From the NCBI RefSeq assembly GCF_030652235.1, contig NZ_JAUSBA010000008.1, forward strand, positions 1 to 64,000: a stretch of 64,000 bases of DNA. The letters run 5' to 3'. Within the stretch, counting starts at the first letter, position 1, and each line of letters starts with the position of its first letter. Under the pieces are notes generated by a model. That model was not told the origin of the DNA. It was given only the letters and a program-made list of their open reading frames with translations, and searched no databases. The stretch is from Cypionkella sp. GTDB taxonomy: Bacteria > Pseudomonadota > Alphaproteobacteria > Rhodobacterales > Rhodobacteraceae. A program made the translations under genes and the position numbers. Positions 48,427-51,130 of the stretch are shown piece after piece.

Positions 48427-48555
48427 TCGGTTAATAATCGCGTTAAGACGCTTATTGGCCCAGTCACCTCATAGGTTACAAAACGAACGCATGGTGGAGA
48501 GTACCCCAAAGCGTGGGGCAATTGTGTTTTCGGGATGATCTGACATATTTCCTGG

Positions 48556-48865
48556 ATGCCTGTACCGTCAGAAATTCTTCAACTCAAACTTCGGCTTTTG
48601 GGGATCAGCCCGATGGTCTGGCGACGCGTGTTTGTTTCTTCGTCAATCACCTTACGTGAGTTGCACGGGATACTTCAGGTTGCGATGGGATGGGACGGCA
48701 TTCACCTGTTCCAGTTTGATATTCGCGCCGTGGATTATGGGTCTTGGGAATTGCATGCAGCGAGTCCTGATGTTCCACTGAGCGGCTTTGGGTTTTGCCG
48801 GAACGACAGGCTTTCCTACATCTACGATATGGGGGGATATTGGAAACACGAAGTCCGAGTTGAAG
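48556..48865 (+). pseudogene. pRiA4b ORF-3-like protein, 3' truncated
   Basis: The frame starts MPVPSEILQLKLRLLGISPM and matches the pRiA4b ORF-3 family: VWRRVFVSSSITLRELHGIL, QVAMGWDGIHLFQFDI and LSYIYDMGGYWKHEVRVE. After KHEVRVE at about 48865 the homology stops, and the DNA continues as the resolvase 3' part in another frame; the frame runs on to 48945 with unrelated residues. About 105 of roughly 180 residues remain. The function of the family is unknown; it is common on plasmids and IS-rich islands. Confidence 0.75.
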
Positions 48866-49153
48866 CTAGCCCTTGGAGGAGTAAACCTGACCAGTTCCGC
48901 TGGGAAGCTGACGATGGGCGTGATCAACGCCGTCGCGCAGTTTGAGCGCGACCTTCTGATTGAGCGCACACAGGCAGGGCTGGCCCGCGCGAAATCTGAG
49001 GGAAAAACCTTGGGCCGTCCGCCCGCGCTGTCAGGCGAACGACATGATCTCGTGCGTCAACGGCTGGCCAATGGCGACAGTGTCTCTACCATCGCACGGG
49101 ACATCAAAACCAGCAGGCAAACAATTATGAGGGCGCGCGACGCGGCAGGGTAA
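48866..49153 (+). pseudogene. Serine resolvase, C-terminal part
   Basis: From about 48866 the sequence encodes LKLALGGVNLTSSAGKLTMG, then AVAQFERDLLIERTQAGLAR and GKTLGRPPALSG, ending with a helix-turn-helix DNA-binding domain (GDSVSTIARDIKTSRQTIMR). This is the end of the catalytic domain and the whole DNA-binding domain of a Tn3-type resolvase/invertase. The N-terminal catalytic half with the active-site Ser is missing because the pRiA4b ORF-3-like fragment joins here. Confidence 0.8.
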
Positions 49154-49168
49154 GAGGGAACAGCAGAG

Positions 49169-50705
49169 ATGGACATATCGATCAAGATTGCAATCACCGC
49201 CCCAGATGGGGTGGTGCATGAGCATGAAATTGCAGCTTTTGAAAAGGGGTTCGAAAGCGCCGCTGAGATAGGGCTCTCCATTGAAGACAGCAAGGCGTTG
49301 CTGTTGAATTTGCAGCAAGAAATCGTTGCCGCACAAACAGCGGCGTTCTGTGCCGACCGTTCCACATGTCCGTGTTGCGCAGGGAGGCTTAGGCGCAAAG
49401 GCAGTAAGGCTATTCAATATCGAACCGTCTTTGGCGATATCACCATATCCAGCCCGCGTTTATACCATTGCCGCTGCCATACCGGATATGCCCAAACGTT
49501 CAGCCCGCTGACAGAGCTGCTCCCCCACCATGTCGCGCCAGAAATGCTCTGGCTGGAAACGAAGTGGGCGTCTTTGGTCTCATATGGCGTCACGGTAGAT
49601 TTGCTCAAAGACGTGCTGCCAATCGACAAACGACTAAACGCGGAAACGGTGCGCAGGCATTTGGGGCGTGTAGCAAGCCGGATGGAAACTGAACTGGCGG
49701 ACGAACGGTACAGCTTTGTCGAGACTAACGCTTATGAACGGGACCGACTTCCCAATCCGGCAGGGGAATCGCGTTTGGGTCTGGGTGGTCGCGTTGAAGT
49801 TTTTCGACATGGGATTCCGGTATCGAACACGACGAGGCGCGTCTTTTGTTCCCAGTATGTTCTCGTATTTCACCCATGGATTTCCAAACGCGATAGCCCT
49901 GCCCAATCCGGAAGGCCCGATCACGGTTGGCATTGATGGTGGATATGTTCGGTCACGCGAAAAAGGCCAATCTCACTTTGAGGTCATGGTTGGCAAATCC
50001 ATTCCTACAGATCGCCCGGATCTCTACCTTGGCCTTGTGCAAAGCCATGATGAAAAGCCCAAGCGGCGATTGCATGAGATTCTGAAAGACCAGGGCTGGC
50101 AGGAAAACCAGCAGGTCACATTCATGACCGATGGCGGTGATACCGTCATCAAGATCGCTCGTGATATGGCGCCTGCATCTGAGCATCTTCTGGACTGGTT
50201 CCATATCACGATGCGCATCACCGTGATGCATCAGTATGTCAAAGGCCTTGCCCATCTGAGCCCAGAGGAAGCCGAGGAGATGGCCAGATCCCTTCGCCAG
50301 ATCAAAGGGTGTCTATGGAATGGCAACCTGCATGATGGGCAGGCGGCCATCGATGACCTAGTCATGGATCTTGACGAGATTGAAACAGGGTACGCCAGTA
50401 CCAAGGCCCTGCGCAAAGCCGCTAATGAATTCCAGACCTATATCGCCAACAATGCTTGGATGATCCCCAACTATGCAGAGCGGCGACGTTATGGCGAGCG
50501 TGTGTCCACAGGTTTTGTTGAAAGCACCGTCAACACCGTCGTGGGCAAGCGGTTCTGCAAGCGTCAGCAGATGCGGTGGTCAAAAACAGGGGCTCACCTC
50601 ATGCTGCAAACACGCACGCGCACGCTGGATGGCACCCTGCGCACGAAGTTCCAGCAATGGTATCCGGGGATGAAAGCCGACGGAGAAATCAAAATGGCAG
50701 CATGA
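49169..50705 (+). pseudogene. ISKra4-family transposase split by a MITE
   Basis: The frame from ATG 49169 (MDISIKIAITAPDGVVHEHE) runs to ERDRLPNP at about 49760, then into unrelated residues to a stop at 49936. The second part resumes with LPNPEGPITVGIDGGYVRSR at about 49900 and continues to KADGEIKMAA at 50705. Removing 151 bases (a 141-bp insert plus one copy of a 10-bp repeat) joins them as DRLPNPEGPITVGIDGG, a 461-residue ISKra4 transposase with CPCCAGRL zinc ligands, VGIDGGYV, MTDGGDTVIK and LLDWFHITMR. It is inactive as it stands. Confidence 0.9.
49761..49901. mobile_element. 141-bp MITE with 10-bp target duplication
   Basis: The insert begins CAGGGGAATCGCGTTTGG and the complement of its right end begins CAGGGCTATCGCGTTTGG, so the 18-bp terminal repeats match at 16 positions. 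Perfect direct repeats CCCAATCCGG lie at 49751-49760 and 49902-49911. It encodes nothing. A 10-bp duplication is typical of IS4-superfamily transposases, but no parent element is present in the window. Confidence 0.92.
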
Positions 50706-50722
50706 TTGCCCCACGCTTTGGG

Positions 50723-51130
50723 GTTCTCTCGGCGACGGTGGTGGCCGAGATTGGCGACATCACGCGGTTTGGAAACCCCCGGCAGCTGATGGCTTGGCTC
50801 GGCCTGGTTCCCAGTGAACATTCCAGCGGGTCCACAACGCGACGTGGCCGATTGACCAAGAGCGGCAATGCGCTTGCGCGGACCATGTTGGTGGAAGCAG
50901 GGTGGTCCTACCGCCACATGCCGAAGGAAGGACACCCGTATCTGAAACGCGCGGCCCATCTGCCGCAGGAAATCCGCGACATCGGATGGAAAGCCCAAAC
51001 CCGACTGTGCAAACGGTTCCGTCACCTGTCAAATGCTGGGAAGCCGCAGCCTCGGGTGTTGGCCGCCATCGCCCGTGAATTGGCGGGCTTCATCTGGGAC
51101 ATCGCGCGCAAGACACCGCTCGCCACCTGA
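50723..51130 (+). pseudogene. IS110-family transposase, C-terminal part
   Basis: Directly at the right end of the ISKra4-like element an in-frame stretch reads VLSATVVAEIGDITRFGNPR, AWLGLVPSEHSSGSTTRRGR and GFIWDIARKTPLAT before a TGA. This is the last 135 residues of an IS110-group transposase, including the Ser-containing C-terminal motif. The N-terminal DEDD domain is absent, apparently displaced by insertion of the ISKra4-like element and a later loss of the left half. Confidence 0.82.

What the first reader, a model, noticed from the sequence alone, without database searches (positions are those of the whole stretch)
49751..49911. MITE whose exact removal restores a transposase reading frame
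A 141-bp non-coding insert with 18-bp terminal repeats (CAGGGNNATCGCGTTTGG on both ends) is flanked by perfect 10-bp repeats CCCAATCCGG. Deleting insert plus one repeat (151 bases) joins the two halves of an ISKra4 transposase as DRLPNPEGPITVGIDGG. This gives unusually clean proof of the insertion boundaries. The duplication length suggests mobilisation by an IS4-superfamily transposase; I do not recognise the MITE and it may be undescribed.
Basis: seen in the sequence. Interest (0 to 1): 0.8.

Follow-up and report, generated by a model that had tools for sequence, protein, structure and literature searches.

The report
Miniature transposon carrying an SOS site
A 141-base non-coding mobile DNA element sits inside a broken transposase gene, and many of its relatives in other bacteria carry, at the same spot, what looks like a binding site for the DNA-damage repressor LexA, which hints that its movement or effects may respond to DNA damage.

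Summary
A 141-bp insert (window 49761-49901) with 18-bp terminal repeats (16/18 identical) and perfect 10-bp flanking repeats interrupts an ISKra4 transposase gene; removing 151 bases gives a frame that aligns without gaps to two intact homologues. It is a MITE: 16 distinct copies of 139-142 bp (window included); 14 are exactly 141 bp, 13 have exact 10-bp target duplications. The likely mobilising family is not IS4 but ISAs1: 1.22-kb ISAs1 elements on Octadecabacter and Cereibacter plasmids have matching ends and 10-bp duplications.

Unexpected: the best-conserved internal feature is GTTC-N7-GTTC, the alphaproteobacterial LexA (SOS) operator, at a fixed place (window 49848-49862). It is exact in 12 of 16 copies (9 of 13 lineages; shuffles average 0.1), although ungapped interior identity between lineages often falls to 50% or less. 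lexA (6 of 6) and recA (5 of 6) promoters in MITE-bearing genomes carry the same form; three complete partner ISs lack it. Against: the window site scores below all 15 exact recA/lexA operators, and weaker relatives often lack the motif. I propose a LexA-bound MITE whose mobility, or effect on neighbours, responds to DNA damage; LexA binding and its consequence are inferred.

The parts
49761..49901 (+). 141-bp MITE
   Evidence: matched ends, 10-bp duplications, same length in other genomes
49751..49760 (.). left copy of target-site duplication CCCAATCCGG
49902..49911 (.). right copy of target-site duplication CCCAATCCGG
49761..49778 (+). left terminal inverted repeat CAGGGGAATCGCGTTTGG, identical to the left end of the Octadecabacter ISAs1 element
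49884..49901 (-). right terminal inverted repeat, reads CAGGGCTATCGCGTTTGG on the minus strand; 17/18 to the right end of the Octadecabacter IS
49848..49862 (-). LexA (SOS) operator-like site, GAACATACTGGGAAC on the minus strand (GTTCCCAGTATGTTC on plus)
49826..49838 (+). second conserved internal block (element positions 66-78, AACACGACGAGGC here; family consensus around ACGAACGC..CGAGAG at 63-78); role unknown
49169..49750 (+). 5' half of the interrupted ISKra4 transposase gene
49902..50705 (+). 3' half of the interrupted ISKra4 transposase gene (shares the duplicated 10 bp)

Best explanation
The insert is a member of a family of non-autonomous miniature elements of about 141 bp found mainly in Rhodobacterales. 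It consists of the outer ends of an ISAs1-family insertion sequence around a non-coding core of roughly 100 bp. It moves in trans by an ISAs1-family transposase that recognises CAGGGNNATCGCNTTNGG ends and duplicates 10 bp of target; this step is supported by anatomy, not by experiment. The core carries a LexA operator-like site (GTTC-N7-GTTC) at a fixed position about 40 bp from the right end. I infer that LexA binds it in undamaged cells and that LexA cleavage after DNA damage frees it. The likeliest effect is on the element itself, bound LexA hindering use of the right end as a transposition substrate. An effect on genes beside it is the second possibility. The window copy is probably a fairly recent insertion (perfect duplication, otherwise open host frame) that inactivated an ISKra4 transposase.
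For: Family: 16 distinct copies of 139-142 bp, window included, the others retrievable by end pattern alone; 14 of 16 exactly 141 bp, 13 of 16 with exact 10-bp TSD. Partner: three complete ISAs1-annotated elements of 1218-1220 bp with ends 0-2 mismatches from the pattern and exact 10-bp TSDs; two of their transposases scanned, both NF033564 (PF13808 and PF01609 for the Octadecabacter one). Contig ends of genome G179 show two more pairs of IS ends with 10-bp TSDs (read by eye). Operator: best-conserved 4-7-4 shape of the interior, rank 1 of 89; exact in 9 of 13 end-found lineages against a dinucleotide-shuffle mean of 0.1, maximum 3, in 2000 rounds; GTTC with spacing 7 is the commonest repeated-tetramer/spacing pair, 7 of 11 elements counted, next best 4. 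In six MITE-bearing genomes GAAC-N7-GAAC lies upstream of recA in 5 of 6 and of lexA in 6 of 6. Caulobacter's published LexA box is GTTCN7GTTC, one example GTTCttgttatGTTC (PMC12700426, passages), close to the GTTCnnnnTATGTTC of several MITE copies. None of the three complete ISAs1 elements contains it.
Against: No LexA binding has been measured. Scores: with a matrix from 16 recA/lexA sites the window site scores 12.9; the 15 exact host operators score 16.3-20.8 (13.3-19.8 left one out) and only the one-mismatch own-genome recA site scores lower, 12.1 (8.1 left out); 3 of 200 shuffles of the window core reach 12.9. Of the nine exact end-found MITE sites four (14.5-16.8) fall in the left-one-out range of the exact operators and five (11.6-12.9) fall below it. 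The matrix is small and from two genes. Four of 13 lineages lack the exact motif. Among 18 further hits of model R1, which was trained with the motif, only 6 have it; the 12 without it are G108, G089, G054, four G227 copies, G321:C18 and four short elements. With a motif-masked model the new finds were mixed: G630 exact, G467a one mismatch, G467b degraded, G607b without it. Two closely related Tateyamaria-type copies at different sites both lack it, so it is not needed for movement. No sigma-70-like promoter in the window copy; neighbours show no consistent orientation or kind (by eye). In the own genome GAACATNNNNNGAAC occurs 12 times, near my naive expectation of about 9, though the reversed control gives 0. 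The own assembly shows only ISAs1 C-terminal remnants.
Confidence: 0.62

Rival explanations
1. An ordinary ISAs1-derived MITE; the GTTC-N7-GTTC motif is an ancestral relic with no function, seen because copies share descent.
For: Eight of the 16 copies belong to one related subgroup; 4 of 13 lineages lost the exact motif; 12 of 18 further model hits lack it; five of nine exact MITE sites, the window's among them, score below the left-one-out range of exact host operators; Tateyamaria-type copies without it exist at two sites.
Against: Ungapped interior identity among the window, Defluviimonas and MAG-88 copies is 24-37 of 97, yet all eight motif bases remain in all of them and in Brevirhabdus; the motif is the most conserved 4-7-4 shape.
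Confidence: 0.35
2. A mobile SOS regulatory module: the element brings a LexA operator, perhaps with a promoter, next to host genes and is kept because of that.
For: The site has the form of those upstream of recA, lexA and an SRAP gene.
Against: No sigma-70-like promoter in the window copy; no consistent neighbour or orientation; the window copy lies inside a gene.
Confidence: 0.2
3. The element is mobilised by an IS4-superfamily transposase, as first proposed.
For: Only the 10-bp duplication length, which IS4-type elements share (recalled).
Against: Complete elements with the same ends carry ISAs1 transposases; no IS4 model was reported for the two partner transposases scanned.
Confidence: 0.03
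4. The core is a short coding region or structured RNA, which keeps the length and the motif constant.
For: Length is nearly always 141 = 3 x 47; several frames are open: 34 over 13 lineages against 26.0 in dinucleotide shuffles, 2 of 300 reaching it.
Against: In the eight more divergent lineages the excess is not significant (20 against 15.7; 26 of 300 reach it), and changes among seven related copies show no codon periodicity, 172/198/155. The consensus fold is essentially the terminal repeats.
Confidence: 0.05

Closest known systems
ISAs1-family insertion sequences (O. arcticus pOA238_160; C. sphaeroides p.A and p.D)
   Same: terminal repeats (O. arcticus: CAGGGGAATCGCGTTTGG / CAGGGCAATCGCGTTTGG; the others 0-2 mismatches from the pattern) and 10-bp duplications
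   Different: 1218-1220 bp with a transposase gene; no GTTC-N7-GTTC motif in any of the three
MITEPye1 of Paracoccus yeei (PMC11578231, passages read)
   Same: small non-coding element of an alphaproteobacterium with terminal repeats and direct repeats, attributed to an IS in trans
   Different: its ends match IS1182-family elements, not ISAs1; the passages read mention no LexA site
LexA-controlled insertion sequences: ISCR1, ISCR8 and, disputed, Tn5/IS50 (PMC13393415, passages read)
   Same: a LexA site in a mobile element
   Different: there LexA acts on the transposase gene promoter of an autonomous element; here there is no gene and no recognisable promoter

Membership tests
MITE | short, non-coding, no transposase gene | tested here: met
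   141 bp; no codon periodicity and no significant excess of open frames in the eight divergent lineages, though an excess over all 13
MITE | terminal inverted repeats and target-site duplication | tested here: met
   16/18 repeat, 10/10 duplication; exact duplication in 13 of 16 copies
MITE | multiple copies at different sites | tested here: met
   single copy in the own assembly, but 16 distinct copies in all; four in one Defluviimonas MAG with four different duplications
ISAs1-mobilised element | ends match an ISAs1-family IS | tested here: met
   left TIR 18/18 identical to the O. arcticus IS left end; right TIR 17/18 to its right end
ISAs1-mobilised element | same duplication length as the partner | tested here: met
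   10 bp in all three complete ISs
ISAs1-mobilised element | moved by ISAs1 transposase in trans | not testable with these tools
   needs a transposition assay
IS4-superfamily derivative | partner transposase belongs to IS4 | tested here: not met
   NF033564 ISAs1 at 302 and 305 bits in the two scanned; no IS4 model reported
LexA (SOS) operator of Alphaproteobacteria | GTTC-N7-GTTC sequence | tested here: met
   window 49848-49862; 12 of 16 copies
LexA (SOS) operator of Alphaproteobacteria | scores like recA/lexA operators of the same genomes | tested here: inconclusive
   same form (recA 5 of 6, lexA 6 of 6), but the window site scores 12.9, below all 15 exact operators (16.3-20.8; 13.3-19.8 left one out); four of nine exact MITE sites fall within the left-one-out range
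LexA (SOS) operator of Alphaproteobacteria | bound by LexA and damage-responsive | not testable with these tools
   needs binding and induction assays

The most novel reading that the evidence does not exclude
A family of gene-less transposable elements has kept a host LexA operator through deep sequence divergence, so that LexA occupancy gates the element as a DNA substrate: mobilisation in trans is held back in healthy cells and released by DNA damage, a layer of control acting on the DNA rather than on transposase expression.
Probability: 0.3. Interest if true: 0.8.

Novelty: new variant of a known kind. Interest (0 to 1): 0.6.

Why it matters
The LexA-controlled insertion sequences I saw in print (passages of PMC13393415) are explained through transposase expression. 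A non-autonomous element that keeps its own LexA operator would separate control of the substrate from control of the enzyme and make it testable with a 141-bp DNA. It would also mean that bacteria can acquire new LexA operators by transposition, a possible route by which SOS regulons change. The clean empty site and the named partner ISs make both claims straightforward to test in laboratory alphaproteobacteria.

Tried and rejected
IS4 origin: rejected. A coding core: not supported; a mononucleotide shuffle suggested an excess of open frames (35 against 14.2 over 14 elements); with dinucleotide shuffles it was 34 against 26.0 over 13 lineages (2 of 300 reach it), but 20 against 15.7 in the eight divergent ones (26 of 300), and there was no codon periodicity. 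RNA structure: the consensus fold finds only the terminal repeats and one pair next to them. An outward sigma-70-like promoter: none in the window copy; other copies were not scanned. Close copies on plasmids: none by megablast with the window copy or by blastn with the Co_bin.272 copy. A second or empty ISKra4 copy in the own assembly: none, so the empty site rests on homologues. Other small elements with ISAs1-like ends but 94-167 bp long (L053, L056, L064, L065, L113-L115, and hits in G315, G064, G265) were set apart; none of these has the motif.

Rows dropped before counts: L059 (same as the G007 copy), L071 (same as L052) and G607a (same element and duplication as L054) as duplicates; the four Defluviimonas copies count as one lineage in the 9 of 13; five of the 18 hits (G315, G064, two of G265 and the contig-end fragment G321:C46) were left out of the 26-sequence alignment. 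The 7 of 11 leaves out four elements of other lengths and three of the four Defluviimonas copies. Model R2 used 11 of the 13 lineages (Pseudooceanicola and ZJ7 left out). L070, a fourth plasmid ISAs1 hit fetched, showed no matching ends and is not counted as a partner.

Full report
The observation. A 141-bp insert (49761-49901) has 18-bp ends that agree at 16 of 18 positions and is flanked by CCCAATCCGG on both sides. The flanking gene is an ISKra4-family transposase: the two parts match NF033572 at positions 8-170 and 180-422. Joining the flanks with one copy of the 10-bp repeat gives a frame of 461 aa plus stop that aligns without a gap to two intact plasmid homologues, 348 of 462 aligned codons identical each, stop included. 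Those two homologues have no extra 151 bases, so the boundary proof holds. The element is single-copy in its own assembly, and no second ISKra4 copy was found there to serve as an internal empty site.

It belongs to a family. A DNA search of 295 genomes of the same bacterial family found one other copy, in a genome whose contig is the same as one titled uncultured Tropicimonas, also 141 bp, with its own 10-bp duplication TCAGGCCTGT. A scan of the GTDB genome collection with a pattern made only of the two ends and a spacer gave 17 stretches, and the same pattern in IMG/VR gave 3. After removing duplicates and four elements of 151-167 bp from other bacteria, and adding the window copy, 16 distinct copies of 139-142 bp remain. 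Fourteen of 16 are exactly 141 bp, and 13 of 16 have an exact 10-bp duplication. The other three are one with 9 of 10, one with no clean duplication and one with a 7-bp repeat. The records that name a genus or family are Rhodobacterales (taxonomy recalled); two are titled only Proteobacteria and Alphaproteobacteria, and two are IMG/VR contigs. Interiors are related but strongly diverged: of 66 pairs of 141-bp copies, 48 exceed the shuffled 99% level of 36 of 97 in ungapped interior identity (each of the near-identical Defluviimonas copies is counted), and the window copy reaches at most 49 of 97 with any other. ZJ7 and MAG-88 are the weakest members; MAG-88 exceeds that level with ZJ7 only.

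The transposase partner. Single copies of the same end pattern in related genomes led to ISAs1-type genes. A protein search of plasmids led to complete elements (four hits fetched, three with both ends): O. arcticus pOA238_160, 1220 bp, with ends CAGGGGAATCGCGTTTGG and CAGGGCAATCGCGTTTGG and duplication CTTGCACGCA; C. sphaeroides p.A, 1218 bp, TCCATGTACC; C. sphaeroides p.D, 1219 bp, CCTGAACTCT, the latter two with ends 0-2 mismatches from the pattern. Two of their transposases were scanned and are ISAs1 family (NF033564, 302 and 305 bits, cut-off 70). The left end of the window MITE is identical to the O. arcticus left end over 18 bp. Some family members share the next bases too (AACTGA in Brevirhabdus). 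Beyond that the core did not look like IS sequence to me; I ran no alignment of the core against the whole IS. In the alignment the two terminal repeats change together at position 13 (G-C, A-T or T-A), as expected if one protein reads both ends. The own assembly shows only C-terminal ISAs1 remnants attached to single ends (C11, below the family cut-off; C42, by eye), so the window copy was probably moved by an element now lost, collapsed in assembly, or carried in from elsewhere.

The LexA-type operator. Aligning the copies showed that conservation inside the element concentrates in a block around positions 63-78 and in GTTC-N7-GTTC at 88-102. The latter is the LexA operator consensus of Alphaproteobacteria (PMC12700426, passages read: published motif GTTCN7GTTC, example GTTCttgttatGTTC). 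It is exact in 12 of the 16 copies, always at element position 88 or 89. By lineage, in a set collected by ends only and so not biased towards the motif, 9 of 13 have it, against 0.1 on average and 3 at most in 2000 dinucleotide-shuffled sets. Among all 89 placements of a 4-7-4 shape in the interior it has the highest weighted conservation, both in that set (0.89 against an interior mean of 0.65) and in the 26 copies aligned (0.88 against 0.58). Several strongly diverged copies, window, Brevirhabdus, Defluviimonas, MAG-88 and three G274 copies, keep it. In six MITE-bearing genomes GAAC-N7-GAAC lies upstream of recA in 5 of 6 and of lexA in 6 of 6; the own genome's recA site differs by one base (read by eye). 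A matrix made from those operators puts its best match in the element at this site in 11 of 13 lineages. In the own genome a site of the same form lies 38 bp from the start of an SRAP (SOS response associated peptidase) gene. The three complete ISAs1 elements do not contain the motif, nor do the other small ISAs1-ended elements examined.

Results against that reading. Four of 13 lineages lack the exact motif. Of 18 further hits of covariance model R1 in 394 genomes (13 genomes with a match) only 6 have it, although the model was trained with it; the 12 without are G108, G089, G054, four G227 copies, G321:C18 and four short elements. When I masked the motif in a second model and searched 390 genomes of the order (9 with a match), the new copies were mixed: G630 exact, G467a one mismatch, G467b degraded, and G607b, a relative of the Tateyamaria copy, without it. 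L054 (the same as G607a) and G607b lie at different sites and both lack it, so an element without it has transposed or been duplicated. The score comparison is also weaker than the exact-match count suggests: the window site scores 12.9, below all 15 exact recA/lexA operators (16.3-20.8; 13.3-19.8 left one out) and above only the one-mismatch own recA site (12.1; 8.1 left out); 3 of 200 shuffles reach it. Of the nine exact end-found MITE sites four (14.5-16.8) fall in the left-one-out range and five (11.6-12.9) below it. Held-out true-type sites do better: the SRAP-side site 18.4 and the Caulobacter example 18.0. The matrix is small and comes from two genes. The looser own-genome scan gave 12 sites, near a naive expectation of about 9, although its reversed control gave 0; several of those sites lie in or beside unrelated reading frames. 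I found no promoter in the window copy and no common neighbour (by eye).

How it most likely works. Shown by sequence: a non-coding element with ISAs1-type ends that inserts with a 10-bp duplication. Inferred: mobilisation in trans by an ISAs1 transposase (I would give this 0.95). Inferred: LexA binds the operator in at least some copies (about 0.65, lowered). Inferred: binding hinders use of the element as a transposition substrate until LexA is cleaved after DNA damage (about 0.3), or it changes transcription near the insertion (about 0.2). The Tateyamaria-type copies fit a repressive or neutral role rather than a required one.

Comparison with what is known. MITEs are a known kind, and a Paracoccus MITE tied to IS1182 is in print (PMC11578231, passages). 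LexA control of transposase promoters is reported for ISCR1 and ISCR8 and disputed for Tn5 (PMC13393415, passages). Full-text searches of the open library for MITE with LexA or SOS box (42 papers, 20 listed; 16 papers, 15 listed), for ISAs1 family with MITE (5 listed) and for insertion sequence with LexA and SOS box (4 papers, 3 listed) showed, by title and abstract start, no paper on a bacterial MITE that carries a LexA operator. I looked at passages of two bacterial papers from these lists that hold both words: one treats a MITE and LexA-controlled integrases separately (PMC3410848), the other matches 'mite' only in an author name (PMC6305408). The library lacks most subscription journals and ISfinder could not be searched, so naming and priority remain open.

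Verdict. A real MITE with clean boundaries, a new family as far as I could see, partner ISAs1 rather than IS4, and an unexpected, strongly conserved LexA-type motif that raises it above routine but still needs a binding test.

Noticed in passing
window 48556-49153: A pRiA4b ORF-3-like gene (PF07929) runs into the C-terminal part of a resolvase gene (PF00239/PF02796). In two homologous loci (L116, L117) pRiA4b ORF-3 and recombinase genes are annotated separately before ISKra4, so the window copy looks internally deleted.
   Followed up: partly
window 48497-48522 and 50705-50730: A 26-bp inverted match (96%) flanks the pRiA4b/resolvase/ISKra4 group: possible ends of the ISKra4 transposon itself.
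   Followed up: no
window 50576-51130: IS110/IS116-type transposase remnant (PF02371) directly after the ISKra4 gene.
   Followed up: no
window 49826-49838 (element positions 66-78): A second conserved block (around ACGAACGC..CGAGAG in many copies) of unknown role, at nearly constant distance from the operator.
   Followed up: partly
the 16 copies of 139-142 bp: Length is held at 141 bp in 14 of 16 copies although ungapped interior identity between lineages often falls to 50% or less; few insertions or deletions survive. Unexplained. The search pattern allowed total lengths of 112-172 bp.
   Followed up: partly
L050, L055, L058, L066: A Defluviimonas MAG holds four nearly identical copies with four different 10-bp duplications: recent mobility.
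   Followed up: partly
L064 4255-4405; L114 5281-5434; L053, L056, L065: Other small elements with ISAs1-like ends outside this family, e.g. 151 bp in Desulfosarcina (duplication GAAGGCTGCG) and 154 bp in a viral contig (duplication GATCTTCCGC); none of these has the operator.
   Followed up: no
L072 4347-4487 and L073 6627-6767: Two copies lie in IMG/VR contigs classed as viral; one is near an integrase-like reading frame (by eye, not tested).
   Followed up: no
G000 contigs C11:38474-38719 and C42:427-757: Single ISAs1-type right ends joined to transposase C-terminal remnants in the own genome; C11 is supported below the family cut-off, C42 by eye.
   Followed up: partly
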